Source of the DNA: Leucobacter sp. 7(1)
Lineage (GTDB): Bacteria > Actinomycetota > Actinomycetes > Actinomycetales > Microbacteriaceae
DNA length: 64,000 bases
Direction: 5' to 3'
Assembly: GCF_900163635.1 (NCBI RefSeq)
Contig: NZ_FUID01000015.1
Span: 1 to 64,000 of the forward strand
This document shows, one piece after another, positions 2,961-56,217 of this stretch. Under the pieces are notes generated by a model. The model ran no database searches, was not told the DNA's origin, and saw only the letters and a program-made list of their open reading frames with translations. How positions within the stretch are numbered: the stretch's first letter is position 1; each line of letters opens with the position of its first letter. A program made the position numbers and the translations under genes.

Positions 2961-3030
2961 GCCAATCTATCTAGCCCGAGGGATATTCCGGGGAATTTCC
3001 CTACATCTCGAGAAAATCACTCGATCTCGG
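2961..3030 (+). repeat. 70-bp intergenic element, copy D
   Basis: One of four ungapped relatives in this window. It starts GCCAATCTATC and carries CTACATCTCGAGAAAA at columns 41-56. It matches the invariant columns 1, 3-5, 8-11, 30, 32, 35, 41-42, 47-48, 50 and 53-55, but not the GG at columns 39-40. It begins 53 bp after the stop codon of the Lrp gene, on the same strand, behind a tract rich in CCGG and CCCGG steps. The candidate promoter of the next operon lies just beyond it. Confidence 0.6.
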
Positions 3031-3037
3031 TGGGCCC

Positions 3038-3065
3038 TTGCCTTGCCCTGGGGCCGTCCTACTAA
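3038..3065 (+). promoter_or_regulatory. Candidate promoter of the OpuC-type operon
   Basis: TTGCCT (3038-3043) and TACTAA (3060-3065) are separated by 16 bp, a plausible but weak sigma-70-type promoter. Initiation near 3072 would leave a leader of about 45 nt before the GTG at 3116. Confidence 0.4.
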
Positions 3066-3115
3066 GGTGGTGGGAACACACAGGGTGCCGTTCGCCCGAC
3101 CTCAGGGGGTGCGTC

Positions 3116-3928
3116 GTGATCGAGTTTGAACACGTGACAAAGACCTATGCCGGGGGAGCGGAGGCGATCCGAGACTTCTCCTGCACGGTCCCCTCACACC
3201 GCACCGTCGCGTTTGTTGGCTCTTCTGGTTCAGGGAAGACGACATTGCTGCGCATGATCAACCGTATGGTGGAGCCCACCTCCGGCCGGGTCCTCATCGA
3301 TGGCGAGGACGTTCGGGAGCGGAACCCCGTCGAACTGCGGCGCTCGATCGGCTACGTGCTGCAGCATGGTGGCCTCCTCCCGCATCGCACAGTCGTCGAC
3401 AACATCTGCGCGATCCCCCGGCTCACGGGCACCCCGAAGCGTGAGGCGCGACACGCGGCGATTGCGCTGCTCGAACGGGTGGGGCTCGATCCGGCGCTCG
3501 GACAGCGATACCCCGCCCAGCTCTCCGGAGGCCAACAACAGCGCGTCGGTGTCGCACGGGCGCTCGCCGCCGATCCCAACATTCTCCTGATGGATGAGCC
3601 GTTCGGAGCCGTTGACCCGATTGTGCGGCGCGAACTCCAGCGTGAATTGCTGCGGCTCCAGGCCGAGCTTGGCAAGACAATCGTGTTTGTCACCCACGAC
3701 GTCGATGAAGCATTCCTGCTGGGCGACGAGGTCGTGGTGCTGGCCGAGGGCGGCGTCGTCGCTCAACGTGGCACTCCGGAAGAGATCCTGAGTCGCCCCG
3801 CGAACGCGTTCGTGCGCGATTTTGTGGGCGCAGACCGCGCGGAACGAAATCTCCGAATTGTTGAGGTTGACGGCCGGCAGCTCGCCGTCGACGACGCGGG
3901 CTGTCCCGTGGGGGTGCTCGAGCGGTGA
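3116..3928 (+). CDS. OpuC-type ABC importer, ATP-binding protein
   Basis: ATPase of a quaternary-amine-type (OpuCA/ProV-like) importer, 270 residues. Walker A is GSSGSGKTT (residues 35-43), the signature is LSGGQQQRV and Walker B is ILLMDEPFGAVDP, followed by the switch His in FVTHDVDEA. There is no C-terminal CBS pair as found in longer OpuCA proteins. The reading frame extends upstream, but the family begins at VIEFEHVTKTY, so I chose GTG 3116, with AGGGGG upstream. The stop overlaps the next gene by 4 bp (GTGA). Confidence 0.85.
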   Translation: MIEFEHVTKTYAGGAEAIRDFSCTVPSHRTVAFVGSSGSGKTTLLRMINRMVEPTSGRVLIDGEDVRERNPVELRRSIGYVLQHGGLLPHRTVVDNICAIPRLTGTPKREARHAAIALLERVGLDPALGQRYPAQLSGGQQQRVGVARALAADPNILLMDEPFGAVDPIVRRELQRELLRLQAELGKTIVFVTHDVDEAFLLGDEVVVLAEGGVVAQRGTPEEILSRPANAFVRDFVGADRAERNLRIVEVDGRQLAVDDAGCPVGVLER

Positions 3929-4605
3929 GTTGGCCACTCGCCAACGGACAGCTGATCCTCGCTGCGGCGGTGGATCATCTGCTGCTCAGCCTGCCCGCGA
4001 TTCTCCTGAGCATCCTCATTGCCGTACCCATCGGTCGGCTCGCGTTCCGCGCCCCGCGGCTGGGCGGCCCGCTTCTCGGGGTCTCGAGTCTGGCCTATGC
4101 AATTCCTGCGTTGCCGCTACTGATCCTCATCCCCGCGCTGATCGGGACGCCGCTGCGGTCCTGGCAGACAATGGTCGTGGCGTTGACCGTCTACGGGGTT
4201 GCCCTCATGGTGCGAACCTCCTGCGACGCATTCGCGGCGGTGGATCCACAGCTTCGGGACGCGGCGGTCGCCATCGGGCATTCCCCCCGCAGCGTGTTCT
4301 GGCGGGTAGAGCTGCCCCTCGCGGTTCCCGTGCTGATTTCAGGAATCCGAGTTGTCGCTGTCTCCACGATCAGTCTCGTCACTATCGGCGCCCTGATCGG
4401 AGTGCGGAGCCTCGGAAGCCTCCTCACCGACGGCTTCCAGCGGGGGATCGCCGCAGAGATATGGAGTGGGGTGATCGCGACGGTTGTGCTCGCACTCCTT
4501 CTCGATGCGTTGATCCTGCTCCTCGGGCGGGTGCTCACCCCGTGGACGCGCCGCGCGACCGAGGGCGTCGAGCCAGTCTCGCTCACCGGGACGGCGGCCT
4601 CATGA
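3925..4605 (+). CDS. OpuC-type ABC importer, permease 1
   Basis: Membrane-spanning subunit of the importer, 226 residues with about five to six hydrophobic segments. The coupling motif recognised by the ATPase lies in the region DAAVAIGHSPRSVFWRVELP, matching the EAA loop of binding-protein-dependent permeases. It is translationally coupled at both ends: GTGA overlap with the ATPase gene, and ATGA overlap with the second permease. Having two separate permeases plus a separate binding protein is the OpuC arrangement, not the OpuA arrangement. Confidence 0.85.
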   Translation: MSWPLANGQLILAAAVDHLLLSLPAILLSILIAVPIGRLAFRAPRLGGPLLGVSSLAYAIPALPLLILIPALIGTPLRSWQTMVVALTVYGVALMVRTSCDAFAAVDPQLRDAAVAIGHSPRSVFWRVELPLAVPVLISGIRVVAVSTISLVTIGALIGVRSLGSLLTDGFQRGIAAEIWSGVIATVVLALLLDALILLLGRVLTPWTRRATEGVEPVSLTGTAAS

Positions 4606-5264
4606 ATCTCTTTATTGAAGCGTGGGCGTGGCTCACGGACCCCGCGCACTGGGCGGGGCCCGGGGGGATTCCGGTGCGGCTGCTCCAACATCTGGGCGTC
4701 ACGCTGCTTGCGGTGTTGGCCGCGGGGGTGCTCGCGGTGCCCGCGGGGATCTTGATCGGTCATACCCGACGCGGGGCTGGCCTCATCGGCGGGTTCGCCG
4801 GTGCGGCGCGGGCGCTGCCCACGCTCGGGCTCCTCACCCTGCTCGGACTCTGGCTCGGTATCGGGCTCGCCGCGCCGGTGATCGCGCTTATCGTGCTGGC
4901 CATCCCCTCACTCCTCGCCGGAGCCTACGCGGGCGTGCAATCGGTGGATCCGGCGGTGCCGGAGGCGGCCCGCGCCATCGGTTTCAGCCCCGCACAGGTC
5001 ATTATGCGCGCTGAGATTCCCCTTGCCCTGCCCGTGCTTATTGGCGGTGTGCGCGCGGCCACCCTGCAGGTTGTCTCGACGGCGACACTGGCTGCCTACA
5101 CCGCTGATCTTGGGCTCGGCCGGTACCTGTTTGCCGGGCTGAAGTCGCGTGACTACCCGCAAATGCTCGGGGGTGCCTTGCTTGTCGTGGCGCTCACCGT
5201 CGCCTGCGAACTCGTGCTCGCGGCGGCACAGCGGGCCGCCACGTTCCGTACGACCACCGATTGA
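4602..5264 (+). CDS. OpuC-type ABC importer, permease 2
   Basis: Second membrane subunit, 220 residues, starting at ATG 4602 inside the stop of permease 1. It has about five to six membrane segments and its own EAA-type loop (EAARAIGFSPAQVIMRAEIP). It is a paralogue of permease 1 and presumably forms a heterodimer with it in the cytoplasmic membrane. The same frame is open far upstream, but that part is a shadow of the first permease. Confidence 0.85.
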   Translation: MNLFIEAWAWLTDPAHWAGPGGIPVRLLQHLGVTLLAVLAAGVLAVPAGILIGHTRRGAGLIGGFAGAARALPTLGLLTLLGLWLGIGLAAPVIALIVLAIPSLLAGAYAGVQSVDPAVPEAARAIGFSPAQVIMRAEIPLALPVLIGGVRAATLQVVSTATLAAYTADLGLGRYLFAGLKSRDYPQMLGGALLVVALTVACELVLAAAQRAATFRTTTD

Positions 5265-5275
5265 AAGGACGAACC

Positions 5276-6193
5276 ATGCATCGACGTATCTCACTGTTCT
5301 CCACCGCGCTTCTCGCGGGCGCGCTCGTCCTCACCGGATGCGCCACGAGTGATCCCCTCGCCGAGGACAGCGGCGGATCAGGGGCCGCCGGGGAGACAAT
5401 CGTGATCGGCTCCCAGGACTACTACTCCAACGAGATCATTGCGGAAAGCTACGCGCAGGCTCTCGAAGCGGGTGGCTACACCGTGGACCGTCAGTTCCGG
5501 ATCGGGCAGCGCGAGGCATACCTGCCGGAGCTCGAAGCGGGCAGCATTGATCTGTTCCCGGAATACACCGGAAACCTGCTGCAGTATTGGACGCCCGAGA
5601 CCAAGGCCCGGCTCTCGGAGCCTGTATATGAGGAACTGCAGACGACCACCCCGGACGGGCTGCGCGTGCTCGCCCAGTCGCCCGCGACCGACCAGGACGC
5701 GTACACAGTCACGCGCGACTTCGCGCAGGAGTGGGATCTGAGCACCATCGCGGATCTCGCGAAGGTCGACGTCCCGCTGACGCTCGGAGCAAACTCTGAG
5801 GCGGAAACCCGGCCCTATGGGCCCAGCGGGCTCGAAGAAACCTACGGCATTGGAGGGGTGAAGTTCACCCCGGTCGAGGATGGCGGCGGACCGCTCACGG
5901 TGAAGGCGCTGACCGACGGGACGATCCAACTCGCAATCATCTACACCGCTGATCCGAGCGTCGCCGAAAACGAACTCGTCGCGCTTGAGGACACGGAGGG
6001 CATTTTTTTGGCCTCCCACGTGGTGCCGCTCGCAAGCGACCGGGTGGATGCGGGAGCCGAGAAGATCGTTGATCGGGTGAGCGCCGCGATGACACCGGAC
6101 GACCTCCGGGAGATGAATGCTCGCAGTGTGCAGGACGAGCTTCCAGCTTCTCAGATCGCCCAGGAATGGCTCACCGCGAAGAGTCTGATCTAA
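5276..6193 (+). CDS. OpuC-type ABC importer, substrate-binding lipoprotein
   Basis: Solute-binding protein of the OpuAC/ProX fold, 305 residues. A short lipoprotein signal ends in the lipobox LTGC with Cys22 as the lipidated residue, so it is anchored outside the membrane. IVIGSQDYYSNEIIAE and the signature IDLFPEYTGN are typical of OpuCC-like proteins. The start at ATG 5276 has AAAGGA in front; an in-frame TTG at 5261 is less likely. The ligand is undetermined: choline, glycine betaine and carnitine are usual, but related systems import ergothioneine, and mycothione reductase follows after 8 bp. Confidence 0.85.
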   Translation: MHRRISLFSTALLAGALVLTGCATSDPLAEDSGGSGAAGETIVIGSQDYYSNEIIAESYAQALEAGGYTVDRQFRIGQREAYLPELEAGSIDLFPEYTGNLLQYWTPETKARLSEPVYEELQTTTPDGLRVLAQSPATDQDAYTVTRDFAQEWDLSTIADLAKVDVPLTLGANSEAETRPYGPSGLEETYGIGGVKFTPVEDGGGPLTVKALTDGTIQLAIIYTADPSVAENELVALEDTEGIFLASHVVPLASDRVDAGAEKIVDRVSAAMTPDDLREMNARSVQDELPASQIAQEWLTAKSLI

Positions 6194-6201
6194 GGAGACC
6201 C

Positions 6202-7674
6202 ATGTCAGTCACATCTTCCGACAATCCGGTTGACCTCGCAATCATCGGATCCGGCTCGGGAAACACCCTCGTTACTCCGTTCTGGGAAGACCGACGTGTG
6301 GTCATCGCTGAGTCTGGCGTTTTTGGCGGAACCTGCCTCAACGTCGGCTGTATCCCGACCAAGATGTTTGTGCGACCCGCGTCACTTGCGCGCGCCCCAG
6401 AGGAAGCGGCGCGGCTCGGCGTCACCCTCCACACTGAGGCGGTTGACTGGCCGGCGATCCGGGACCGGATATTTGGGCGAATTGACCCGATATCTGCCTC
6501 GGGAGAGCGCTACAGGCGCGACGAGCAAGCTCATGTCGAGCTGATCTCGCAGCGAGTACGCCTGGACGGCACCCACGCGATCGTGGCGGAGGACGGCACC
6601 CGGGTGGCCGCGCGCCAGCTCGTGATTGCCGCGGGCTCGCGGCCCGTGCTGCCCGAGTTCCCGGGCATTGGCTTGCCCGAGGTGCACACTTCGGAAACGG
6701 TGATGCGCTTGGCCGAGCTACCCACGCGCGTCCTCGTCATCGGTGGTGGTGCCATCGCGAGCGAGTTTGCTTCGATCTTCTCGGGGCTGGGATCCGAGGT
6801 GATTCAAGTGCACCGGCGCGCACACCTGCTGTCGCACGCGGAGCCGGAGATCGCGGAGCGCTTCACCGAGGCCGCCGGACGGCGCTGGGGCTTGCGCCTC
6901 AGTAGCGCGGTCCGCCGGATCGATCCTGCGGACGACGGAGATGGCGTCGTTGTCGAGCTGAAAGCCGCGACGGACGAGGCGAAATCGGCGTCCGGATCCG
7001 GCACCGCGAGTGAGCGTGTGCAGGTCGATATCGTCCTCGTCGCGATCGGCCGCCGCCCCAACTCCGATCTCGTGGGTGCCGCGGAAGCGGGGCTTGACCT
7101 GCACCCGGATGGTCGTATTGCGGTCGATGCCGAGCAGCGGGTGCTTTCGGGCGGCGCGCCGGTCCCCGGGCTGTACGCCCTCGGGGACGTGTGCACGCCG
7201 TTCAAGCTCAAGCACGTTGCGAATCACGAAGCGCGGGTCGTGGCCCACAACCTGGAGCACCCGGACGATCTGCGGGCGGCGCGGCACGAGGCCGTCCCGG
7301 AGGCGATCTTCAGTGCCCCCGAAGTTGCGACAGTGGGGGAGACGCAGGCCGAGGCAGCCGCCCGGATCGGGGCGGAGCATGTGACCGCGTTCACCAAGCA
7401 GTACGGGGACACGGCCTACGGCTGGGCGCTGGAGGACACGGAAGGGCTCTGCACTGTGGTCGCTGATCGGCGGAACGGTCAGGTGCTTGGCGCGCACATT
7501 GTGGGGCATGAGGCGTCCATGCTGATCCAGCTCCCGGTGATGGCGATGAGTTTCGGAATCGATGCCCACACCGTGGCGCGCGGGCAGTATTGGCCGCACC
7601 CGTCCCTGATGGAGGTCGTGGAGAACGCTCTGTTGGGGCTTGATGTGCCCCGGGGCGAGCGCCCGCCGCTATGA
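6202..7674 (+). CDS. mtr: Mycothione reductase
   Basis: Flavoprotein disulfide reductase, 490 residues, that uses NADPH to reduce mycothiol disulfide, the main thiol buffer of actinobacteria. The FAD-binding GSGSGN lies at residues 16-21 and the redox-active pair at Cys45 and Cys50 (GGTCLNVGC). The NADPH-binding VIGGGAIASEFASIF is central, and the C-terminal dimerisation domain ends with the QYWPHPSLMEVVE region holding the acid-base His. It starts at ATG 6202 with AAGGAG upstream, 8 bp after the transporter lipoprotein, so it probably shares that mRNA. Confidence 0.85.
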   Translation: MSVTSSDNPVDLAIIGSGSGNTLVTPFWEDRRVVIAESGVFGGTCLNVGCIPTKMFVRPASLARAPEEAARLGVTLHTEAVDWPAIRDRIFGRIDPISASGERYRRDEQAHVELISQRVRLDGTHAIVAEDGTRVAARQLVIAAGSRPVLPEFPGIGLPEVHTSETVMRLAELPTRVLVIGGGAIASEFASIFSGLGSEVIQVHRRAHLLSHAEPEIAERFTEAAGRRWGLRLSSAVRRIDPADDGDGVVVELKAATDEAKSASGSGTASERVQVDIVLVAIGRRPNSDLVGAAEAGLDLHPDGRIAVDAEQRVLSGGAPVPGLYALGDVCTPFKLKHVANHEARVVAHNLEHPDDLRAARHEAVPEAIFSAPEVATVGETQAEAAARIGAEHVTAFTKQYGDTAYGWALEDTEGLCTVVADRRNGQVLGAHIVGHEASMLIQLPVMAMSFGIDAHTVARGQYWPHPSLMEVVENALLGLDVPRGERPPL

Positions 7675-7725
7675 GTGGCCCGGCGGGAGGATTGGTGCCT
7701 GCCTGTCTGCCGGCCTGCCTCACCC

Positions 7726-7765
7726 GTGCCGTGCCGTGTCGTGCCGTGCCGTGTCGTGCCGTGCC
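7726..7765 (+). repeat. Tandem GTGCC/GTGTC pentamer array
   Basis: Eight 5-bp units, GTGCC with GTGTC at the third and sixth place, giving a 15-bp higher-order period. It lies in the 300-bp gap between mtr and the TfoX-like gene, just upstream of repeat copy A, and forms part of its C-rich 5' flank. Confidence 0.75.
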
Positions 7766-7778
7766 GCCTCCAAACGTA

Positions 7779-7848
7779 GGCAATTTATCGAGCGCGATGC
7801 AAATATCGTGGAAAACGGCTCAAGCTAGATAAAAACCGTCAGTTTGGG
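7779..7848 (+). repeat. 70-bp intergenic element, copy A
   Basis: This copy begins GGCAATTTATC and contains TGGAAAACGGCTCA, GATAAAAACCG and the 3' end TCAGTTTGGG. It starts 105 bp after the mtr stop on the same strand. The 5' flank is pyrimidine-rich and the 3' flank is G-rich (GGGGCAGAGGCAAGG). It shares its last block almost exactly with copy B (TCGGTTTGGG). Confidence 0.7.
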
Positions 7849-7886
7849 TGGGGCAGAGGCAAGGCAAGGCGCGACCGGACCCGACC

Positions 7887-7926
7887 GGGGAACGCCGGGG
7901 AACGCTGGGGCACGCCGGGGAACGCC
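7887..7926 (+). repeat. Tandem 10-bp GGGGAACGCC-type array
   Basis: Four degenerate 10-bp units (GGGGAACGCC, GGGGAACGCT, GGGGCACGCC, GGGGAACGCC) lie between repeat copy A and the TfoX-like gene. Apart from this, copy A and the pentamer array, the gap at 7675-7974 holds nothing I recognise. Confidence 0.7.
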
Positions 7927-7974
7927 GGGCCGGGTCCCGCGCGGTGCCCGGCCCCCGAGGCGTAATGTGGGCGC

Positions 7975-8313
7975 ATGGGGACCAGAGCCGAGACCATCGA
8001 GTTTCTCACCGACCAGCTCAGCGCACTGCCGAGCCTGCGCACTCGCCGCATGTTCGGGGAGTACGGAGTGTACTGCGACGAAAAGGTCGTTGCCTTCGTG
8101 TGCGATGACACTCTGTTCGTGAAGCCGACCGAGGCCGGGCGCGCCTACCTGGAGACCCCGGAGGAGGCACCCGCCTACCCGGGGTCCAAGCTCTACTTCA
8201 AGGTCGACGGCGACCGCTGGGAGGACCGCGACTGGCTGGTAGGCCTCATCGACTGCACCGCGGCGGAGCTCCCCGTGCCGAAGCCGAAGCCCGCGCGCAA
8301 GCCGAAGACGTGA
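7975..8313 (+). CDS. TfoX/Sxy N-terminal domain protein
   Basis: A 112-residue protein with the N-terminal domain of TfoX/Sxy, the competence regulator family: RRMFGEYGVYCDEKVVAFVCDDTLFVKP is the usual core. The C-terminal helix-hairpin domain of full TfoX is absent and is replaced by a basic proline/lysine tail (PKPKPARKPK). Such short proteins are widespread and not proven to act in competence. The start at ATG 7975 has only a weak ribosome site. The gene stands alone, bracketed by repeat copies A and B in inverted orientation. Confidence 0.75.
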   Translation: MGTRAETIEFLTDQLSALPSLRTRRMFGEYGVYCDEKVVAFVCDDTLFVKPTEAGRAYLETPEEAPAYPGSKLYFKVDGDRWEDRDWLVGLIDCTAAELPVPKPKPARKPKT

Positions 8314-8356
8314 GTGCCGGGTGCGATAGGCGCCCGTGGGCGATGCCCAGCGCGCG

Positions 8357-8426
8357 CCCAAACCGACGATGTTTCGCGAGACCGAGCCTTTTTCCGCGGA
8401 AAGCGGCATAGTTCGGATAATTTGCC
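8357..8426 (-). repeat. 70-bp intergenic element, copy B
   Basis: Read on the minus strand it begins GGCAAATTATCC, contains CGGAAAAAGGCTCGGTCTCG and ends TCGGTTTGGG. It starts 85 bp after the stop of the minus-strand NUDIX gene, in the same orientation as that gene, and faces copy A across the TfoX-like gene. All 19 invariant columns of the family are present. Confidence 0.7.
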
Positions 8427-8433
8427 TCGGGGA

Positions 8434-8509
8434 GGGCGAGCCTGGCGAGCCGGGCGGACGGGCGAGCCGGGCGGACGGGCGGGCCGGACGGGCGGGCCGG
8501 GCGAGTCGG
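8434..8509. repeat. GC-rich minisatellite next to repeat copy B
   Basis: Imperfect tandem units built from GGCGAGCC and GGGCGGACG fill the gap between copy B and the NUDIX stop. A 17-bp unit (GGCGAGCCGGGCGGACG) occurs twice, followed by shortened versions. In the sense of the NUDIX gene the tract is C-rich and poor in A. Confidence 0.7.
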
Positions 8510-8510
8510 A

Positions 8511-8969
8511 CTAGCCGCGGGCGCGCAGCGCCGGGAACACGAAATCAGTGTTCAGCGGCGCCATATCCGTGCGGGCTGCGGCGGGATCGATCCACTCGAT
8601 CCGTTCGATCTCGGCCTGCGCCTCGGCGGACTCAGCGCCCGGCACGAGCGGATGCTCGAACACCGCGGCCTCGACGACAAAGCCCGGCTCGTTCGCGGCC
8701 GTGGCACGGAATACTCCGAGATCCTGGAGCTGCGCCGGATCCAGCGCCAGCCCGAGCTCCTCGGACACCTCACGCACCGCGGTGGCGCGGGCATCCTCGC
8801 CCGCCTCCGGCTTGCCGCCCGGCAGCATGAAGCTCGCGGTACCGCGCTTGCGCACGTTCAGTACGAGCCCCTCGGCGTTGCGCATCACCACAGCGCTCAC
8901 CCGAATCACGCGGGGCTCCGGGGAGTGCGCGGCAGACAGTGCGGATGAGATGTTTGGATCGGTGCTCAC
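8511..8969 (-). CDS. NUDIX hydrolase
   Basis: A 152-residue NUDIX-fold pyrophosphohydrolase, probably acting on a nucleoside diphosphate derivative. The NUDIX box is complete: GGKPEAGEDARATAVREVSE followed by ELG, matching G-x5-E-x7-REV-x-EE-x-G. LVLNVRKRGTASFMLPGG forms the preceding strand, as in MutT-like and ADP-ribose-type hydrolases. The GTG start at 8969 follows the VanY-type gene by 30 bp on the same strand, so they may be cotranscribed. The substrate cannot be assigned. Confidence 0.8.
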   Translation of the reverse strand: MSTDPNISSALSAAHSPEPRVIRVSAVVMRNAEGLVLNVRKRGTASFMLPGGKPEAGEDARATAVREVSEELGLALDPAQLQDLGVFRATAANEPGFVVEAAVFEHPLVPGAESAEAQAEIERIEWIDPAAARTDMAPLNTDFVFPALRARG

Positions 8970-8999
8970 CCGTCGAGTGTAACGTCGCCAGGCACCGGA

Positions 9000-9797: not shown

Positions 9798-9857
9798 GCT
9801 GTCAGCCTACGGCCTCACGCCCGGTTCGGGCGGGGCAGGACCGGTTAGGCTGGCCGC

Positions 9858-11117: not shown

Positions 11118-11127
11118 CGCGGGCGGG

Positions 11128-16865: not shown

Positions 16866-19800
16866 TTGGCTGCTGCGCGCAACGCATCGTCATCCACCCA
16901 ACCGAAGAACGGTCGCGATCATCAGCGGCTTTCCTTCGCCAAAATTTCCGACACACTGTCGGTGCCGAATCTGCTGGCACTGCAGCTTGAGAGCTTCGAT
17001 TGGCTCGTCGGCAACGATGTCTGGAAGGAGCGCGTCGTCGAGGCTCAGGCCGCGGGACGCGACGACATCGCACTGAAGAGCGGTCTGGAGGAGATCTTCG
17101 ACGAGATCTCCCCGATCGAGGACAACGCTGGCACCATGCAGCTGTCCTTCGAGAACCCGATTCTCGACGAGCAGAAGTTCACCATCGAGGAGTGCAAGGA
17201 GCGCGGCAAGACGTACGCGGCTCCGCTGTACGTCGAGGCGGCGTTCTACAACACCGAGACGCAGGTGCTGAAGAGCCAGACGGTCTACATGGGCGATTTC
17301 CCCATCATGACCGACAAGGGCACCTTCATCATCAACGGCACCGAGCGTGTCATCGTGTCGCAGCTCGTGCGTAGCCCGGGCGTCTACTTCGACCGCACGC
17401 AGGAGAAGACCTCCGATAAGGACGTCTTCACCGCACGCGTGATCCCGAGCCGCGGTGCATGGCTCGAGTTCGAGGTCGACAAGCGCGACCAGGTCGGCGT
17501 TCGTATCGACCGCAAGCGTAAGCAGTCGGTCACGGTCTTCCTGAAGGCCCTCGGCATGACCAGCGAGGAAATCCTCGAGGAGTTCGCCGGCTACGAGTCG
17601 ATCGCACTCACCCTGGAGAAGGATGCAATCCTCACCCAGGAAGAAGCGCTCAAGGACATCTACCGGAAGCAGCGTCCGGGCGAGCAGGTGGCCATCGAAG
17701 CCGCACGTGCGCTCCTCGACAACAGCTACTTCAACGATAAGCGCTACGACCTCGCAAAGGTGGGTCGCTACAAGATCAACCGCAAGCTCGGCATCGACGC
17801 GCCCATCACCGACTCGGTGCTCTCGCTCGAGGACATCGTCTCGACGATCAAGTACCTCGTGGGCCTGCACGCCGGCACCGAGAAGCTCCCCGGCGTCCGC
17901 GACGGCGAGATCATCGACATCCGCCTGGACACCGACGATATCGATCACTTCGGCAACCGTCGTATCCGCGCCGTGGGTGAGCTCATTCAGAACCAGGTCC
18001 GCACGGGCCTGAGCCGGATGGAGCGCGTGGTCCGCGAGCGCATGACGACGCAGGACATCGAGGCGATCACGCCGAACACCCTGATCAACACGCGTCCCGT
18101 GCTGGCCGCGATCAAGGAGTTCTTCGGAACCTCGCAGCTGTCGCAGTTCATGGATCAGAACAACCCGCTCGCGGGCCTGACCAACAAGCGCCGTCTGTCT
18201 GCGCTCGGCCCGGGCGGTCTGTCCCGTGACCGCGCAGGCGTCGAGGTGCGAGACGTTCACCCCTCGCACTACGGCCGCATGTGCCCTATTGAGACCCCGG
18301 AAGGCCCGAACATTGGTCTGATCGGTGCCCTCGCAACCTTCGCGCGCATCAATGCGTTCGGCTTCATCGAGACGCCGTACCGCCGGGTGCTGCAGGGCAA
18401 GGTCACCGACGAGGTCAACTACCTGACCGCGCACGAAGAGGACGAGTACCTCATCGCACAGGCCGGGGCTCCGCTGACCAAGGACGGCAAGTTCTCCGAG
18501 AAGCAGGTGCTTGCGCGCCCCCGTGGCTCTGAGGTTGTTCTCGTCGACGCTGAGCGCGTTGACTACATGGACGTTTCGCCGCGCCAGATGGTGTCGGTCG
18601 CGACCTCGCTGATCCCGTTCCTCGAGCACGACGATGCCAACCGCGCCCTCATGGGTGCCAACATGCAGCGTCAGGCTGTGCCGCTCGTCCGCTCCGAGTC
18701 GCCCGTCGTGGGCACCGGTATGGAGGGCTACGCAGCCATCGACGCGGGCGACGTTGTCACCGCAGCGAAGGCTGGCGTGATCGCTGACGTTTCGGCTGAC
18801 GTCGTCACCATCCAGGAGGATGAGGGCGGCACGAAGAGCTACTTCATGCGCAAGTTCGACCGCTCGAACCAGGGCACGAACTACAACCACCGCGTCATCG
18901 TGAAGGCTGGCGACCGCATCGAGGCCGGCGAGGTCATCGCCGACGGCCCCGCGACGGAGAACGGCGAGCTCGCGCTCGGCAAGAACCTCCTCGTGGCGTT
19001 CATGTCTTGGGAGGGTCACAACTTCGAGGACGCGATCATCCTGAGCCAGAACCTGGTGAAGGACGACACGCTCTCCTCGATCCACATCGAGGAATACGAC
19101 ATCGATGCTCGTGACACCAAGCTCGGCAAGGAAGAGATCACCCGTGACCTCCCCAACGCCAGCATGGAGGCGCTGAAGGATCTCGACGAGCGCGGCATCA
19201 TCCGCATCGGCGCTGAAGTTTCGCCCGGCGACATCCTCGTGGGGAAGGTCACGCCGAAGGGTGAGACCGAGCTTTCCGCTGAGGAGCGCCTGCTGCGCGC
19301 GATCTTCAACGAGAAGAGCCGCGAGGTGCGCGACACGTCCCTGAAGGTGCCCCACGGCGTCTCGGGTACGGTCACGTCCGTCAAGGTCTTCGACGCAGAG
19401 AACGACAACGATGACGAGCTGGGCTCGGGCGTCAACCAGCGCGTCGTGGTCTACATCGCTCAGAAGCGTAAGATCACCGAGGGTGACAAGCTCGCCGGCC
19501 GTCACGGCAACAAGGGTGTCATCTCGAAGATCCTGCCCGTCGAGGACATGCCGTTCCTCGCGGACGGTACGCCGGTTGACGTGATCCTGAACCCGCTGGG
19601 TATTCCGGGTCGAATGAACTTCGGTCAGGTCCTTGAGGTGCACCTCGGCTGGATCGCGAAGCAGGGCTGGAAGGTCGACGGCTCCCCGGAGTGGGCTGCG
19701 AAGCTCTCGCAGCAGGCACTCGAGGCTGCCCCGAACACCAAGGTTGCGACCCCCGTGTTCGACGGCGCATCCGAGGCCGAGATCGCCGGTCTGCTGGACT

Positions 19801-45158: not shown

Positions 45159-45161
45159 CCG

Positions 45162-49025: not shown

Positions 49026-49028
49026 GTC

Positions 49029-49871: not shown

Positions 49872-49875
49872 CAGC

Positions 49876-49904
49876 TTTACAAACCGGAGTTCTCGGACTA
49901 TCCT
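49876..49904 (+). promoter_or_regulatory. infA: infA promoter
   Basis: TTTACA (49876-49881), an exact 17-bp spacer and TATCCT (49899-49904) form a good sigma-70-type promoter immediately after the map stop. The leader of about 90 nt contains the palindrome TTTCGCG-TT-CGCGAAA (49929-49944). Confidence 0.7.
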
Positions 49905-49999
49905 TGATCTTTGGTGCTTTGCGCCTGTTTTCGCGTTCGCGAAAGCGGGCGTTTCGCATTCGCAAGACCAGTAGAACCTACGCGAGCGATAGTGAGGCT

Positions 50000-50221
50000 A
50001 TGGCGAAAAAAGACGGCGTCATCGAGATCGAGGGACAGGTTGTCGAGGCATTGCCCAACGCAATGTTCCGAGTTGAACTGACCAACGGACACAAAGTGCT
50101 CGCCCACATCTCGGGCAAAATGCGACAGCACTACATTCGCATTCTGCCCGGCGACCGTGTGATTGTGGAGCTCACGCCCTACGATCTGACCCGCGGCCGG
50201 ATCGTCTACCGCTACAAGTAG
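50000..50221 (+). CDS. infA: Translation initiation factor IF-1
   Basis: A 73-residue OB-fold factor that binds the A site during initiation. [20 protein letters not shown] and [20 protein letters not shown] are standard. The start is ATG 50000 with GTGAGG upstream; the open frame extends further but that is map sequence in another frame. Confidence 0.97.
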
Positions 50222-50289
50222 GTCGCTGGAAAGTAACGGCGCCCGGCATCCCGGTCGTACGATGACAGCGAAATCCTAAAGGAAACATC

Positions 50290-50406
50290 ATGAAGGTAAA
50301 TCCCAGCGTTAAGCCGATCTGCGATCACTGCAAGGTGATCCGCCGCCACGGCCGCGTCATGGTGATCTGCAAGAGCAACCCGCGTCACAAGCAGCGCCAG
50401 GGCTAA
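50290..50406 (+). CDS. rpmJ: 50S ribosomal protein L36, zinc-binding form
   Basis: A 38-residue protein, [20 protein letters not shown] onward to KQRQG. Cys11, Cys14, Cys27 and His33 are the zinc ligands of the C+ type, so a zinc-independent paralogue may exist elsewhere. ATG 50290 with AAAGGAAA upstream, 68 bp after infA. Confidence 0.96.
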
Positions 50407-50563
50407 CACCCCCGCTGCGTGCCGGTCACGCAGAACCCCGCAATTGCATTACTGATCCAGCGCATCGAAGAACCCGCCTGATTTTCGGGCGGGGGACACC
50501 TCGGGACAGAGGCCCGAACCCCCGATGCGCATCACACCTCTACTACCGCTAGGAGAAGCCAGA
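50407..50563 (+). ncRNA. Structured leader before rpsM
   Basis: After a first hairpin CTGCGTG/CACGCAG (50415-50433), an 8-bp helix GCGCATCG (50460-50467) with CGATGCGC (50523-50530) encloses two hairpins: CCCGCC/GGCGGG (50473-50493) and TCGGG/CCCGA (50501-50517). This is a three-way junction ending about 30 nt before the rpsM start, a form expected of a ribosomal-protein binding leader. The protein that would bind is unknown. Confidence 0.5.
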
Positions 50564-50932
50564 ATGGCACGTCTCGCCGGAGTCGACATCCCACGCGAAA
50601 AGCGCGTTGAGATTGCACTCACTTACATCTACGGGGTCGGCCGCACCAGCGCGCTGAAGACGCTGGAAGCCACCGAGATCGACGGCAACATCCGCGTCAA
50701 GGATCTCACCGACGATCAGCTCGTCTCGCTCCGTGACTACATCGAAACCAACTTCAAGGTTGAGGGTGACCTCCGCCGTGAGGTGGCCGCAGATATCCGC
50801 CGCAAGGTCGAGATCGGCAGCTACCAGGGTATCCGCCACCGCAAGGGCCTGCCCGTGCATGGTCAGCGCACCAAGACGAACGCTCGTACCCGTAAGGGTC
50901 CGAAGCGCACCGTCGCCGGCAAGAAGAAGTAA
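50564..50932 (+). CDS. rpsM: 30S ribosomal protein S13
   Basis: A 122-residue head protein contacting P-site tRNA and L5 ([30 protein letters not shown] tail). The start is ATG 50564 with AGGAGA upstream; the in-frame ATG at 50525 lies inside the structured leader and is rejected. Confidence 0.97.
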
Positions 50933-50980
50933 TAGCCGGTCCACTCGACCATCACACAGAGCTTTTCAGGAGAATACTCA

Positions 50981-51379
50981 ATGGCTGCACCAAAGACAGC
51001 GGCTCGTAAGCCGCGTCGCAAGGACAAGAAGAACGTGGTCGTGGGCCAGGCCCACATCAAGTCGACGTTCAACAACACGATCGTTTCGATCACGGACACC
51101 ACCGGTGCTGTGATCAGCTGGGCTTCCTCCGGCGGAGTCGGCTTCAAGGGTTCGCGTAAGTCGACCCCGTTCGCCGCTCAGCTCGCTGCCGAGTCGGCTG
51201 CGCGCAAGGCGCAGGAGCACGGCATGAAGAAGGTTGACGTCTTCGTCAAGGGCCCTGGCTCCGGACGCGAGACCGCCATCCGTTCGCTGCAGGCCGCAGG
51301 CCTCGAGGTGGGGTCGATCAACGACGTCACCCCGCAGACGCACAACGGCTGCCGCCCCCCGAAGCGCCGTCGCGTCTAA
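50981..51379 (+). CDS. rpsK: 30S ribosomal protein S11
   Basis: A 132-residue platform protein. [18 protein letters not shown] and the C-terminal [13 protein letters not shown] are conserved. It sits between rpsM and rpoA with 48 bp upstream and 150 bp downstream; rpsD is not in this operon. Confidence 0.97.
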
Positions 51380-51529
51380 GGAGCATTCGCTGATTCTCGG
51401 GGCGAACGATTCGTCGTTCGCCCCGGGAACGCGCCGGGGCTCCGAGTGAACCCCGGGTGCACAGAGGACACCCTCATTCCCGATACCGCATGAGTCATAT
51501 AGCGGACTCCAGCGAAAGGACCACACACC

Positions 51530-52519
51530 TTGCTCATTGCACAGCGACCCACACTCACCGAAGAATCGATCTCCGAGCACCGTTCGCGCTTCGCGATCGA
51601 GCCGCTTGAGCCCGGCTTTGGTTACACGCTCGGCAACTCGCTGCGGCGCACGCTGCTGTCCTCGATCCCCGGCGCTGCAGTTACGAGCGTCCGCTTCGAG
51701 GGTGTCGCCCACGAGTTCACGACCATTGCGGGCGTGACCGAGGACGTCACCGAGATCATCCTGAACATCAAGGATCTCGTCGTCTCGAGCGAGCACGACG
51801 AGCCGATCACCGCGTACCTGCGCAAGACGGGTGCCGGCGAAGTGACCGCGGCTGACATTTCTGCACCTGCCGGTGTTGAGGTGCACAACCCCGAGCTCGT
51901 TATCGCGACGCTCAGCGACTCCGCACAGTTCGAACTGGAACTGACGATCGAGCGTGGCCGCGGCTACGTTTCGGCCGCGCAGAACCGGAACGAAGACGCA
52001 GAGGTAGGCCGGATCCCCGTGGATTCGATCTACTCGCCGGTCCTCAAGGTCACCTACCGCGTGGAAGCTACGCGTGCCGGTGAGCGGACCGACTTCGACC
52101 GCCTCGTCGTTGACGTCGAGTCGAAGCCCGCGATCAGCCCCCGCGACGCGATCGCATCGGCTGGCTCGACGCTGGTGGAGCTCTTCGGGCTTGCACGCGA
52201 ACTGAACACCGCTGCCGAGGGCGTCGAGATCGGCCCCGCGCCGGTCGAGGTTGTCACGGAGGGCGAGCTCTCGATCCCGATCGAGGATCTCGACCTGTCG
52301 GTGCGCAGCTACAACTGCCTGAAGCGTGAGGGCATCAACACGGTGAGCGAGCTCGTTGCGCTCTCCGAGGCCCAGCTGATGAACATCCGCAACTTCGGTC
52401 AGAAGTCCGTCTTCGAGGTGCGCGACAAGCTCACCGAGATGGGACTGTCGCTGAAGGATGCAGTGCCCGGATTCGACGGCGCACAGTTCTACAGCTACGA
52501 AGACGACAACAACAACTAA
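51530..52519 (+). CDS. rpoA: DNA-directed RNA polymerase subunit alpha
   Basis: The 329-residue alpha subunit. The N-terminal domain ([20 protein letters not shown]) drives assembly; the C-terminal domain ([20 protein letters not shown]) binds UP elements and activators. The start is TTG 51530 with GAAAGGA upstream, as no ATG or GTG fits the family N terminus. Confidence 0.97.
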
Positions 52520-52565
52520 CGATCCGTCGGTCCCCGGCCCGATCGTATATTCAACGGAGTAAAGA

Positions 52566-53075
52566 ATGCCGAAGCCCACGAAGGGCGCCCGCCTCGGAGG
52601 CGGCCCCGCACACGAGCGCCTGATGCTCAACCAGATGGCTGCGCAGCTCTTTGAGCACAAGCGCATCCAGACCACCGAGACGAAGGCGAAGCGCCTGCAG
52701 CCCATCGCTGAGCGCCTCGTGACGTTCGCGAAGCGCGGCGATCTTGCCGCACGTCGTCGTGCGATGCGTCAGATCACCGACAAGTCGGTCATCCACGAGC
52801 TCTTCACGGAGATCGCGCCGCTCGTCGAGAACCGCGAGGGTGGTTACACGCGCATCGTCAAGACCGGCTACCGCAAGGGTGACCGTGCGCCGATGGCCGT
52901 GATCGAGCTCGTGCTCGAGCCCGTTCAGCCCAAGGTGAAGGCCGCTAAGGCCGAGCCGAAGGCCGAGAAGGTCGAGGAGGCCCCCGCTGAGGAGGCTGTT
53001 GAGGCAACCGAGGTCACCGAGGCAGAGGCGACTGACGCCCCCGCTGAGGCTGCCGCGGAGGAAAAGGCCGAGTAG
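52566..53075 (+). CDS. rplQ: 50S ribosomal protein L17 with acidic tail
   Basis: The L17 core fills residues 1-118 ([20 protein letters not shown]). The protein has 169 residues because of an Ala/Glu-rich C-terminal tail of about 50 residues, common in actinobacteria and probably disordered. Last gene of the operon, closed by a strong terminator. Confidence 0.96.
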
Positions 53076-53092
53076 GTCTCGCTTCACCCTTC

Positions 53093-53130
53093 ATAATGCC
53101 CCGCTGATCTTCGGATCAGCGGGGCATTAT
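53093..53130. terminator. Bidirectional terminator between rplQ and the acyltransferase gene
   Basis: A perfect 17-bp stem (53093-53109 with 53114-53130), ATAATGCCCCGCTGATC and its complement, around a TTCG tetraloop. The AT-rich stem ends give short T runs on both strands, and the flanking genes converge. Confidence 0.9.
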
Positions 53131-53143
53131 GCGTGTAGCGGGG

Positions 53144-55084
53144 CTACCGGCGGGGGAGCGCGAAGCCACGCGCTTCACCGGGCTGCTGGAGCGCTTCAAG
53201 CGCCCGTTGCACCGACTGAGCGTAGATCACGCCACCGCTGGGATTCGGGTGGATATCGTCACCGGCGAGCGCGTCCTCAACGCCAGTGACGGCACCCGTC
53301 CAATCGGCAACGACAACGCCGCGATGCGCCGCTGCAAATTCCGTGAGTGTCGTGTTGACCTGCGGAATCCAGTCGCGATCTGCGTGGGCGTTAACGAGGA
53401 TGAGCGGCCGGTCCGCCGCAATCGTGAGAAGCTCGTCCAGCGATTCCGGCTCGACCGGTCCGTTGGTGCCAAGTCCCACGAGCAGTACTTGCCGGAGGGA
53501 TCCGTCTGAGGCCCACTCGGCGGTGAGTTCAACTCCGACGCCCATGCCGCGTGAGACCGCTGCGTCGATCGCGATTCCGGGGAACGCGTCTTCGAGTTCG
53601 GGCAGGCTTGCGAGCATGACAGAGTCTCCGACCGCGCTGATCTCTGCGCCTTCGGGTACAAGCGGGGCATCCGGCGTCGCTGTGGGAGTGGCGCCAGGGC
53701 TGGGAGTGCTGCCGTCCTTGGTCTCGTTCCTCGGGTCCGGTGAGGACCGATCCTGAGTGTCGGGCGCGTCCGGGGGCTGCGTTTCTGGAGAGGTGGCTGT
53801 CGGCTCGGACCGTTCCAGCGCGGCCTGCCCACGTGCGATCGCTTCGGCCGCCGAGGTCTGGGCGGGAGCCGTCACAACCGCGGTGACGCCGGCGGGGATG
53901 GCCACAGCAAGGACAACGCCGAGCGCGATCGCTACGGTGCGCTGGCGCGGCGTGTAGTTGAGCGGTCGCACGAGTAAGCGGATAGATCGTCGGAGCCCGA
54001 AGCGACGCACAGGCTGCTCCACATACCGGTACGAGAGCGCCGCGGCGCCCAGCGTCGTCACGAGTGTCACAACTGCGACAAGCCAACTCTGCGCGGGGCC
54101 AAACGCTGCGGTAGCAATGAGCAGCAGGGGCCAGTGCCACAGGTAGATCCCATAGGAGCGCTCGCCAATCCAGCGCAGTGGCTGAACATCAAGTGCGCGG
54201 CCCACCACTGCTCCGGGACGGGTCACCGACCACACAAGCGCGAGCGCTGCGACAGTGGCGAGCTGGAATCCGCCTTGGAAACTCTGGGGGCTCCCCTCTG
54301 GCAGCGTCGCGGCCAGCCACGCGAGAACCGCAAGCGAGACCACGGTGACGATGCCCCAGCCAGTCTGCCTCGCGGGCCCCGCGGCCCGGTCCGGGGGAGC
54401 GGTCGCTTGCGGCTGGATGAGCGCCGCAAGCGCGGCCCCCCAGAAGAGTCCGAACGTGTGAGTATCGGAACCAAAGTACACGCGTGTCGGATCGGCACCC
54501 TGCAGGGACAGTTCGGCCATGAGAGCCGCGGAAACTACACCGAGAATGATCAGCGGGATGGCCCGGCTGCTGCGCCCTCGAAGTTTGAGGAGCAGGAGTA
54601 CGAGAAGCGGCAGCAGGATGTAGAACTGCTCCTCGATAGAAAGTGACCAGGTGTTCCTAAAGAGCTCCGGCGTATCGCGGGCGAAATAATCGGCGCCGTT
54701 AGCGATAAACACCCAGTTACTCACGAAGAACGAAGCGCCCGCGATCTGGCTTCCAATGCCGACGAGCAGGTCGCCGCCCAGGGGTAGCGCGAGTGCTGCG
54801 CAGACGAGGAGCACCAGGCCGAGCGCGGGGAGGAGACGGCGCGCACGACGTCGCCAGAAATCTCCCAGACGTATCGTGCCGCTCAGTGCGGATTCACGGA
54901 GTAACAGGGACGTGATCAGGAACCCACTGATCGCAAAGAAGATGTCCACGCCGAGGAAACCGCCGGGCAGCGCGAGCGGGAAGAGATGGTAAGCGAGGAC
55001 CAGGCCCACGGCGAGCGCGCGCAAGCCGTCGAGGCCGCCAAAGCGGGCAGGGCGGGTGGCGGCTGGAGTAAGAAGAGGGGGCAT
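53144..55084 (-). CDS. OafA-type membrane acyltransferase with SGNH domain
   Basis: A 646-residue protein that O-acylates a surface glycan. The N-terminal acyltransferase-3 domain has about ten to eleven membrane helices and the motif LDGLRALAVGLVLAYHL with the catalytic His, plus GGFLGVDIFFAISGFLITSL. A Pro/Thr/Asp-rich linker (about residues 430-480) leads to an extracellular SGNH hydrolase-like domain: GDSVM, GLGTNG and DDIHPN give the Ser, Gly/Asn and Asp-His positions. It is inserted between rplQ and truA on the opposite strand. ATG 55084. Confidence 0.85.
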   Translation of the reverse strand: MPPLLTPAATRPARFGGLDGLRALAVGLVLAYHLFPLALPGGFLGVDIFFAISGFLITSLLLRESALSGTIRLGDFWRRRARRLLPALGLVLLVCAALALPLGGDLLVGIGSQIAGASFFVSNWVFIANGADYFARDTPELFRNTWSLSIEEQFYILLPLLVLLLLKLRGRSSRAIPLIILGVVSAALMAELSLQGADPTRVYFGSDTHTFGLFWGAALAALIQPQATAPPDRAAGPARQTGWGIVTVVSLAVLAWLAATLPEGSPQSFQGGFQLATVAALALVWSVTRPGAVVGRALDVQPLRWIGERSYGIYLWHWPLLLIATAAFGPAQSWLVAVVTLVTTLGAAALSYRYVEQPVRRFGLRRSIRLLVRPLNYTPRQRTVAIALGVVLAVAIPAGVTAVVTAPAQTSAAEAIARGQAALERSEPTATSPETQPPDAPDTQDRSSPDPRNETKDGSTPSPGATPTATPDAPLVPEGAEISAVGDSVMLASLPELEDAFPGIAIDAAVSRGMGVGVELTAEWASDGSLRQVLLVGLGTNGPVEPESLDELLTIAADRPLILVNAHADRDWIPQVNTTLTEFAAAHRGVVVADWTGAVTGVEDALAGDDIHPNPSGGVIYAQSVQRALEALQQPGEARGFALPRR

Positions 55085-55190
55085 GGAGAAGCTTTCGGAC
55101 CACGCACTGAGCGTGCGCGTCCGGATCTAGTGTACGCGGCGGAAGCTGGGCACGGTGTGCCCGGGAGCGTGGATCTGGCAGGATCGAAGG

Positions 55191-56093
55191 GTGACTTCCG
55201 AGCCTGCAGCACTTTCGACCCGTGTGCGCCTTGACCTTGCCTATGACGGCACGGACTTTTCGGGGTGGGCGGCTCAGCCGGGACTGCGGACGGTCCAGGG
55301 CGAGCTTGAAGCGGCGCTCAGGGTGCTGCTGCGGGCCTCAGAAGCGCGACTCACCGTAGGGGGTCGCACCGACGCGGGTGTGCACGCGCGAGGACAGGTA
55401 GCTCATCTTGATGTGACCGACGAGCAATTACGGAAGTGGTCTGGGCAGCGGAACGATCCCGAGGCATCCGAGCCCGACGCGAGCGCCTCGGCGACCCGCG
55501 CCCGGCGACTCACCGGGGTGTTGAAACGGAGCGCCCCAGACATTGCGGTGCACGCGGCCACGGTCGCACCTGCGAGCTTTGACGCGCGGTTCTCTGCCCT
55601 GCGCCGTCGCTATGAATACCGGGTACGCCCGAGTGGAGTGCGCCGCGACCCGTTGACTGCGAGGTTCACCGTGGATGTGCCAGCTCCACTGGATCTTGAC
55701 GCGATGCAGGCGGCTGCCGACGAATTGCTCGGACTGAATGACTTCACGACGTTCTGCAAAGCCAGGGAGGGTGCCACCGCGGTGCGTGATCTGCTCAGCT
55801 TCGAGTGGCGGACCACCGAGGACGGAGCATTCGCTGCGCGGATTGAAGCCGACGCGTTTTGCCACTCTATGGTTCGTGCACTCGTGGGGGCAGTTGTCGC
55901 CGTCGGGAGTGGGCGGCTGACACTTGACGAGCTGCGGGTGCTGCGGGACGCGCGAGTGCGCTCGAGCCGGTTCACGGTCATGCCCGCGCACGGGCTCTCG
56001 CTTGAAGAGATTCGCTACCCCGAAGACGAGCACGCGCTCCGTGATCGCGCCGAGGCGACACGCGCTCGACGTGCCCCGATCGCGGGGGCATAG
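55191..56093 (+). CDS. truA: tRNA pseudouridine synthase A
   Basis: A 300-residue enzyme that makes pseudouridine at positions 38-40 of tRNA anticodon stems. The catalytic Asp61 lies in GGRTDAGVHARGQVAHL, and RRRYEYRV holds the conserved Tyr. An insert rich in Asp, Glu, Ser and Ala follows the first half (about residues 82-98), a feature of actinobacterial TruA. The start is GTG 55191, with GAAGG upstream; an ATG at 55155 is open but less likely. Confidence 0.93.
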   Translation: MTSEPAALSTRVRLDLAYDGTDFSGWAAQPGLRTVQGELEAALRVLLRASEARLTVGGRTDAGVHARGQVAHLDVTDEQLRKWSGQRNDPEASEPDASASATRARRLTGVLKRSAPDIAVHAATVAPASFDARFSALRRRYEYRVRPSGVRRDPLTARFTVDVPAPLDLDAMQAAADELLGLNDFTTFCKAREGATAVRDLLSFEWRTTEDGAFAARIEADAFCHSMVRALVGAVVAVGSGRLTLDELRVLRDARVRSSRFTVMPAHGLSLEEIRYPEDEHALRDRAEATRARRAPIAGA

Positions 56094-56147
56094 TTGCCGC
56101 TGCTCCGCCCCCACCGGAACCCCGCTCAGCCACCTCGCCGAAACTGA

Positions 56148-56217
56148 GTCAAATTATCCTCACCGATGACAATTAGGTGATATTTGGCTCACTCTCGATA
56201 AAACGCGTGGGGTAGGA
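56148..56217 (+). repeat. 70-bp intergenic element, copy C
   Basis: It starts GTCAAATTATCC and contains TGATATTTGGCTCACTCTCG and GATAAAACGCG. All 19 invariant family columns are present. It begins 55 bp after the truA stop in the same orientation, after a C-rich tract, and is followed by a G-rich minisatellite. Confidence 0.7.

What the first reader, a model, noticed from the sequence alone, without database searches (positions are those of the whole stretch)
2961..56217. Undescribed 70-bp intergenic element present four times
Seen directly: 2961-3030 (+), 7779-7848 (+), 8357-8426 (-) and 56148-56217 (+) align without a gap. In the first 60 columns 19 are identical in all four: column 1, CAA at 3-5, TATC at 8-11, 30, 32, 35, CT at 41-42, CT at 47-48, G at 50 and AAA at 53-55. 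The consensus is near GGCAAATTATC, then about 18 variable bases, then TGGAAAAnGGCTC, TCTCGATAAAA and, in two copies, TCnGTTTGGG. Columns 12-29 vary freely, as a loop or linker would. About one invariant column would be expected by chance, although I picked the offsets. I know no family that fits.
Basis: seen in the sequence. Interest (0 to 1): 0.85.

Follow-up and report, generated by a model that had tools for sequence, protein, structure and literature searches.

The report
Leucobacter extragenic palindromes, IS30 landing pads
The repeat is an 80-base DNA palindrome scattered between genes of the bacterium Leucobacter, different species carry different versions of it, and a jumping gene of the IS30 family uses such palindromes as landing sites.

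Summary
The four copies are real. The element is larger than reported: an 80-bp imperfect palindrome, each arm holding two direct 19-bp units (M M | M' M'). The draft genome (Leucobacter) has at least 46 intact places. A profile of the four window copies alone finds 37 places in 499 kb of stretches chosen around elements of a near relative, and none in 10 shuffles. 22 of 54 Leucobacter genomes score. 33 of 37 elements of the near relative have a partner at the orthologous place. Conserved columns are constrained (rho -0.84). Compensated double changes number 43, against 16 expected. G-T mismatches do not outnumber A-C (50 against 58), so the signal looks like DNA, not RNA. Copies lie between genes, most often convergent ones. 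Of 17 end junctions of a resident IS30-family element, 7 lie in this element, 9 in a second palindrome family, and one, a diverged copy, in neither. No target duplication and no RAYT gene was found. Best reading: a new, long REP-like extragenic palindrome family acting as DNA. What spreads it, and any host benefit, are not shown.

The parts
2951..3030 (+). copy 1 of the 80-bp palindrome (M M M' M'), between an AsnC-type regulator gene (1964-2908) and an ABC-transporter ATPase gene (3116-3928), same direction
   Evidence: orthologous copy in L. c. solipictus L097:6709; neighbours
7769..7848 (+). copy 2, between a pyridine-nucleotide-disulphide oxidoreductase gene (ends 7674) and a TfoX_N gene (7975-8313), same direction
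   Evidence: orthologous copy L097:11580; an element of different sequence lies in the same gap in G008
8357..8436 (-). copy 3, between the convergent TfoX_N (ends 8313) and NUDIX (3' end 8511) genes
   Evidence: orthologous copy L097:12163; the gap is only about 50-70 bp in L. zeae and L. edaphi and no match there
56138..56217 (+). copy 4 (the most degenerate of the four: 16 of 40 pairs Watson-Crick), between the tRNA pseudouridine synthase gene (ends 56093) and the ribosomal protein L13 gene (56467), same direction
   Evidence: orthologous copy in G041 L280:9997

Best explanation
The element is a REP-like extragenic palindrome: an 80-bp hairpin former built of four 19-bp units (two direct, then two inverted) around a 4-bp centre. 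It sits in dozens of gaps behind gene ends, most often between convergent genes. Shown: copy number, palindrome, 19-bp period, location, orthologous retention in a near relative, constraint on specific columns, arm-to-arm coupling (compensated double changes), and repeated interruption by an IS30-family insertion sequence. Inferred: the DNA itself folds (cruciform, or hairpin in the lagging-strand template), and the arms are kept complementary by selection on the folded form, by template-switch copying between arms, or both. Also inferred: a sequence-specific DNA-binding protein reads the 19-bp units (C-N6-GA-N6-TT), and the IS30-family transposase uses the palindrome as a target. What spreads the element is not shown: no Y1 (RAYT) transposase gene was found in this genome and no target-site duplication is seen. 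Any benefit to the host (supercoil sink, 3'-end boundary) is speculation.
For: At least 46 intact places in the genome; shuffles 0. Both-strand matches. 19-bp self-similarity: 14 of 21 columns identical at offset 19, the highest of offsets 10-29. Constraint: column information among copies against ortholog mismatch rho -0.84; mismatch 0.10 at the 10 most conserved columns, 0.37 at the 10 least (23 ortholog pairs). Coupling: 43 both-sides-changed, still Watson-Crick cells against 15.9 +/- 3.6 and 15.8 +/- 4.1 in two nulls, maxima 29 and 36. DNA level: G-T 50 against A-C 58 in 24 copies between co-directional genes (p 0.50). Location: 21 of 41 convergent gaps against 12 of 170 others in held G041 stretches (p 6e-10); G000 19 of 29 against 15 of 106 (p 1.5e-7). 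Retention: 33 of 37 G041 elements have a G000 element at the orthologous place. IS30: of 17 end junctions 7 lie in this element and 9 in palindrome family B; transposase fragment NF033563, 82.9 bits, cut-off 80. REP precedent for location and IS targeting: passages of PMC3733652 and PMC1525189.
Against: The first covariation count (9 sequences) showed no excess over shuffles (112 of 500 reach the percentage paired, 131 of 500 the covariation score). Coupling is uneven: 9 of the 23 ortholog pairs have no compensated double change. Compensated changes are mildly clustered (8 adjacent against 3.5, p 0.014), so copying or conversion may explain part of them. The REP tags and the RAYT gene are absent. 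Movement was not caught: near relatives share nearly all places, and mobility rests on differing versions and on places empty in G000 (G001 L095, G057 L203, G030 L188). One of 17 IS30 ends, a diverged copy at C23, lies in no palindrome that I can see. The binding protein is hypothetical.
Confidence: 0.6

Rival explanations
1. Bidirectional transcription terminator or mRNA 3'-end stabiliser acting as RNA.
For: Sits behind stop codons, usually within about 200 bases, strongly enriched between convergent genes; can fold into a long hairpin on either strand; arms co-vary.
Against: No U-run follows the hairpin (at most 4 T in 12 bases, 24 copies). G-T mismatches are no commoner than A-C when oriented by transcription (50 against 58). 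At one locus (C75, L058) a terminator-like hairpin already stands before the element (by eye). Fixed length and a conserved 19-bp unit are not needed by a terminator. 32 of 54 Leucobacter genomes have no match at the threshold used (strict filters, capped candidates).
Confidence: 0.15
2. Array of four binding sites for a host chromosomal or regulatory protein, kept for a cell function (nucleoid, supercoiling or boundary protein).
For: Column-specific constraint (rho -0.84), M M M' M' symmetry, orthologous retention, 21 places spread along the complete chromosome of G057.
Against: Versions differ between species of one genus (by eye) and 32 of 54 genomes have no match at threshold; half-sites of a dimeric operator need not co-vary, yet the arms do.
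Confidence: 0.15
3. MITE: internally deleted DNA transposon whose inverted ends each carry two transposase sites.
For: Inverted ends with two direct repeats each; places occupied in one species and empty in another; different versions in different species.
Against: No target-site duplication (mean longest flank repeat 1.83 against 2.18 by chance, 42 copies); practically no interior; the half-element search of the own draft genome (150 of 637 candidates scored) found solo arms only where IS30 interrupts an element.
Confidence: 0.1

Closest known systems
REP / BIME / REPIN (repetitive extragenic palindromes)
   Same: Intergenic, many copies, palindromic, several versions, between convergent or co-directional genes, targets of insertion sequences (PMC3733652 passages; PMC1525189 abstract and passages).
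   Different: 80 bp against 20-40 bp for a REP; no GTAG or CGTC tag; each arm is two 19-bp direct repeats; no Y1 transposase gene in 20 genomes searched including its own; no G-T preference, whereas PMC3733652 reports frequent G-T pairing in GTAG stems.
IS30-family target hot spots (IS30 LHS; IS1655)
   Same: IS30 uses nearly palindromic hot-spot sequences (passages of PMC9333248); here 16 of 17 ends of an IS30-family element lie in palindromes. A table passage of PMC1525189 lists IS1655 (IS30 family) beside REPs in 2 of 13 and 2 of 6 Neisseria copies.
   Different: The target here is a dispersed repeat family under constraint of its own, hit nearly exclusively. The five families that PMC1525189 names as REP-targeting are IS3, IS110, IS4, IS256 and IS5. 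That IS1655 targets resemble its own ends is recalled, not read.
MITEs
   Same: Short, non-coding, inverted ends, dispersed.
   Different: No target duplication, no interior, no autonomous partner found.
Intrinsic terminators
   Same: Hairpin behind gene ends.
   Different: No U-run, no RNA mismatch bias, 80 bp of conserved design.

Membership tests
REP (GTAG/CGTC class) | dispersed extragenic palindrome in many copies | tested here: met
   46 places in G000; no midpoint inside a called gene in G000 or G041; three of 83 overlap a called gene end by 11, 15 and 58 bases
REP (GTAG/CGTC class) | 20-40 bp unit tagged at one end with GTAG or CGTC (PMC3733652) | tested here: not met
   80-bp unit with consensus ends CCCAAAC/GTTTGGG
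REP (GTAG/CGTC class) | associated Y1 (RAYT) transposase | tested here: not met
   PF01797: 0 of 20 genomes incl. own; 5 of 14 control genomes ring
REP (GTAG/CGTC class) | placement mainly between co-directional and convergent genes | tested here: met
   G041: 22 convergent, 11 tandem, 2 divergent, 2 edge of 37; G000: 21, 12, 4, 9 of 46; other genomes 25, 24, 3, 1 of 53
REP (GTAG/CGTC class) | target of insertion sequences | tested here: met
   IS30-family element at 7 arms
MITE | target-site duplication | tested here: not met
   42 copies, 1.83 against 2.18 by chance
MITE | autonomous relative with the same ends | tested here: inconclusive
   half-element model, own draft genome only, 150 of 637 candidates scored: solo arms only at IS30 junctions
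Intrinsic terminator | U-run after the hairpin | tested here: not met
   at most 4 T in the first 12 bases after the element in 24 oriented copies
Structured RNA (Rfam) | match above a family's gathering score | tested here: not met
   0 matches in the window; on the best hairpin (L177) only sub-threshold matches, mostly animal miRNA models
Structured RNA (Rfam) | expressed and processed RNA | not testable with these tools
   no RNA-seq

The most novel reading that the evidence does not exclude
A new class of repeat: palindromes of fixed design (two 19-bp units per arm) in which the fold and a few read-out positions persist while each lineage rewrites the rest, kept complementary by arm-to-arm copying, read by a co-evolving and as yet unknown DNA-binding factor, spread without a Y1 transposase or a duplication-leaving one, and exploited by IS30-family elements as safe harbours.
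Probability: 0.25. Interest if true: 0.78.

Novelty: new variant of a known kind. Interest (0 to 1): 0.6.

Why it matters
Extragenic palindromes with RAYT transposases are best known from proteobacteria (recalled). Here is a family in an actinobacterial genus with another design, no RAYT gene found, measurable arm-to-arm coupling between two close genomes, and a resident IS30-family element whose ends lie in palindromes in 16 of 17 cases. That makes two old questions testable in one genus: how such palindromes spread and stay palindromic, and whether transposases read palindromes by sequence or by shape. In practice the IS copies in palindromes explain many contig breaks of this draft genome.

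Tried and rejected
Nine-sequence covariation count: no excess over shuffles; the ortholog test is reported beside it.

De novo palindrome scans: too strict for degenerate copies; they miss the window's own copies, so absence there means little.

RAYT hypothesis: no PF01797 match. MITE hypothesis: weakened. RNA hypothesis: weakened. Homogenisation between copies: orthologs (74%, 36 pairs) are still more alike than paralogs (63% in G000, 67% in G041), so it is not evident at this distance; the two direct units of an arm are no more alike than units of different arms (0.503 against 0.518).

Deep synteny: the same gap is occupied by elements of other sequence in G008, G057 and G007, and elements of G001, G057 and G030 have no counterpart in G000; too few to tell old inheritance from repeated insertion.

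Literature: searches; nothing on this element was seen in the listings. Of the papers, PMC3733652 and PMC9333248 were seen as passages, PMC1525189 as outline, abstract and passages, the rest as listings. The library holds open-licence PMC papers only.

Full report
What was checked. A profile of the four copies matches each copy on both strands (copy 4 on its weaker strand only at E 0.41), which shows that the unit is a palindrome.

Anatomy. The consensus arm from 23 copies of this genome is CCCAAACCGAGGCATTTTATCCAGCCCGAGCCATTTTCCG. It holds two 19-bp units in direct orientation: at offset 19, 14 of 21 columns are identical, the highest of the offsets 10 to 29. The element is therefore M M, a 4-bp centre, M' M'. 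The ten best-conserved columns are 2, 9, 10, 11, 17, 18, 21, 28, 29 and 36, that is C-N6-GA-N6-TT in each unit. The copy at C42:91855 has 35 of 40 Watson-Crick pairs; the window's copies are more degenerate, with 16 to 24.

How many. A covariance model from nine copies (R1) gives 90 matches at E<=1 in the 3.92-Mb draft genome, which reduce to 46 places. Only 150 of 415 candidates of the first look were scored, so 46 is a lower bound. The four-copy profile alone gives 46 places in the 320 kb held from this genome and 37 in 499 kb from the nearest relative at E<=1, against 0 in 10 shuffles of each; these stretches had been chosen for holding elements.

Who has it. A protein next to the copies places the genome in Leucobacter, nearest named record L. 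chromiireducens subsp. solipictus. A second model (R2, 37 pairs, 122 matches from five genomes and L097) scores in 22 of 54 Leucobacter genomes including its own at E<=0.001, with strict filters and at most 83 candidates scored per genome. In the Microbacteriaceae search (249 genomes, E<=1e-4, 18 candidates scored each) 5 genomes score: its own and one in each of four other genera. Some of those, such as G119, are long near-perfect hairpins (by eye); whether they descend from the same element is not shown. With R1, 0 of 7 genomes from other families of the order score at E<=0.01. The versions printed differ between species by eye: for example CCGAAACCGCGCGCATCTTTCGAGATCGCGC in G001 and units like CGAGACCGACTGTTTCAG in most G056 copies; G056 seems to carry three versions. 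I did not cluster them formally.

Near relative. G041 is inferred to be L. c. solipictus TAN 31504 (a contig of 148,356 bases, as in the record). In 26 stretches of G041 R2 finds 37 elements. 33 of the 37 have an element of the window's genome within 700 bp of the orthologous position; of the other four one has no G000 flank held and three have some flank nearby but no listed G000 element. Of the 46 G000 elements 34 have a partner, 10 have no G041 flank held, and 2 have an aligned flank without one (L058, which has another palindrome there, and L067:4078, one flank only); this direction is biased because G041 stretches were fetched around G041 elements. Several differences are local doublets, one copy in one genome and two in the other. 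All three window copies inside the L097 record are shared; copy 2 is 91% identical while its flanks hardly align. L. zeae and L. edaphi show no match at the second and third, and gaps of only about 50-70 bp.

Constraint. 36 ortholog pairs were listed; 28 were set in register (second partners of doublets and some one-sided ones left out) and 5 of these with gapless identity under 0.6 were dropped. Over the remaining 23, column information among copies predicts ortholog mismatch with rho -0.84; the ten best-conserved columns mismatch in 10% and the ten worst in 37%. Orthologs are 74% identical on average, paralogs 63-67%. So specific positions are held while the rest changes fast.

Coupling of the arms. 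Of 102 pairs changed on both sides between orthologs, 43 are Watson-Crick in both genomes. Dealing the right-arm columns out anew among loci gives 15.9 +/- 3.6 (maximum 29 in 2000 trials), and permuting whole right arms 15.8 +/- 4.1 (maximum 36 in 5000). 14 of the 23 pairs have at least one such change, 9 none. Earlier counts were weaker: no excess with nine sequences, and a moderate excess in 43 of 46 copies (1080 Watson-Crick cells against 957 expected; three out-of-register copies left out). Compensated changes are mildly clustered (8 adjacent against 3.5, p 0.014), which leaves room for arm-to-arm template switching beside selection.

DNA rather than RNA. In 24 copies between co-directional genes, oriented by transcription, G-T mismatches number 50 and A-C 58 (p 0.50); in model orientation 103 and 91. 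An RNA under selection should favour G-U. No U-run follows. At C75 (L058) a terminator-like hairpin stands upstream of the element (by eye). Gene orientations come from a simple codon-score gene caller of mine, with window copy 4 corrected by hand.

Where. No element has its midpoint inside a called gene in G000 or G041; three of 83 overlap a called gene end, by 11, 15 and 58 bases. G041: 22 convergent, 11 tandem, 2 divergent, 2 at an edge, of 37; G000: 21, 12, 4 and 9 of 46 (one G000 'divergent' is the miscalled window copy 4). In held G041 stretches 21 of 41 convergent gaps of at least 80 bp hold an element, against 12 of 170 others (p 6e-10); in G000 19 of 29 against 15 of 106. In other genomes 25 convergent, 24 tandem, 3 divergent, 1 edge of 53. 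The bias may reflect mere tolerance behind genes, as for REPs.

IS30. A sequence-only model of one arm (R3) finds solo arms at contig ends (150 of 637 candidates scored). They are broken by an insertion sequence whose transposase fragment matches NF033563, IS30 family, at 82.9 bits (cut-off 80); Pfam gives only a sub-threshold rve_3 match. Searches with its two ends give 10 right and 6 left junctions at 98-100% identity and one right end at 90% (C23). Seven junctions (C67, C18, C47, C38; C60, C99, C29) lie in this element, near columns 30-32 of an arm (read by eye); their arm matches run from E 4e-7 to 0.17 (C29 the weakest). Nine lie in a second palindrome family, B, with arms GAGGGGACGCA..TCGGGG. 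The diverged C23 copy has no palindrome beside it that I can see. So 16 of 17 ends lie in palindromes. Family B has eight uninterrupted places in this genome (30 pattern matches in all, of which 16 form these eight, 9 are IS junctions and 5 stand alone; reversed-pattern control 2) and none in G041, whose single match is not palindromic. No contig holds both junctions of one insertion, so a 3-bp target duplication of the IS is consistent but not shown.

What spreads it. No Y1 transposase gene was found (PF01797, 0 of 20 genomes). No target duplication (42 copies). No autonomous element with these arms in the own draft genome. Some places are occupied in one species and empty in this one (G001 L095, G057 L203, G030 L188), others hold different versions (G008, G057, G007).

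Comparison with the known. It works like a REP: extragenic, palindromic, behind genes, target of insertion sequences (PMC3733652, passages; PMC1525189, abstract and passages). It is not a member of the GTAG/CGTC REP class, since tag, size and RAYT fail. PMC1525189 names IS3, IS110, IS4, IS256 and IS5 as REP-targeting families, and its table also lists a few IS1655 (IS30 family) copies beside Neisseria REPs. IS30 hot spots that are nearly palindromic are described in PMC9333248 (passages). No Rfam family reaches threshold.

Verdict. A real family not seen in the searches named, a new variant of the extragenic-palindrome kind, acting most likely as DNA. The spreading enzyme and any host function remain open.

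Noticed in passing
own genome outside the window, e.g. C31:57283-57337, C69:86349-86402, C96:4604-4658 (L357-L376): Second palindrome family B (about 56 bp, arms GAGGGGACGCACTTCGGGG, a centre that varies between copies and in several pairs with itself): eight uninterrupted places and nine IS30 junctions, none in G041.
   Followed up: partly
L271, about 19170-19240 (G041): A third, different palindrome (CATCGATGGTTGGATTTTGGTTG...) at the locus where the window's genome has one of the 80-bp elements.
   Followed up: no
window 7740-7768, 7850-7950, 8440-8510: Elements are embedded in GC-rich short tandem repeats that differ between near relatives, as if replication slips beside the hairpin.
   Followed up: no
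L203, L216, L187: Extra tandem copies of the 19-bp unit beyond the end of the element.
   Followed up: no
L260:1954-2012 (G040): An unrelated-looking 59-base hairpin near the tfoX-like gene in another Leucobacter.
   Followed up: no
ends of contigs C67, C18, C47, C38, C60, C99, C29, C71, C3, C104, C37, C33, C28, C96, C50, C32 of the draft genome: Contigs break at IS30-family copies inside palindromes, so intact-element counts are lower bounds.
   Followed up: yes
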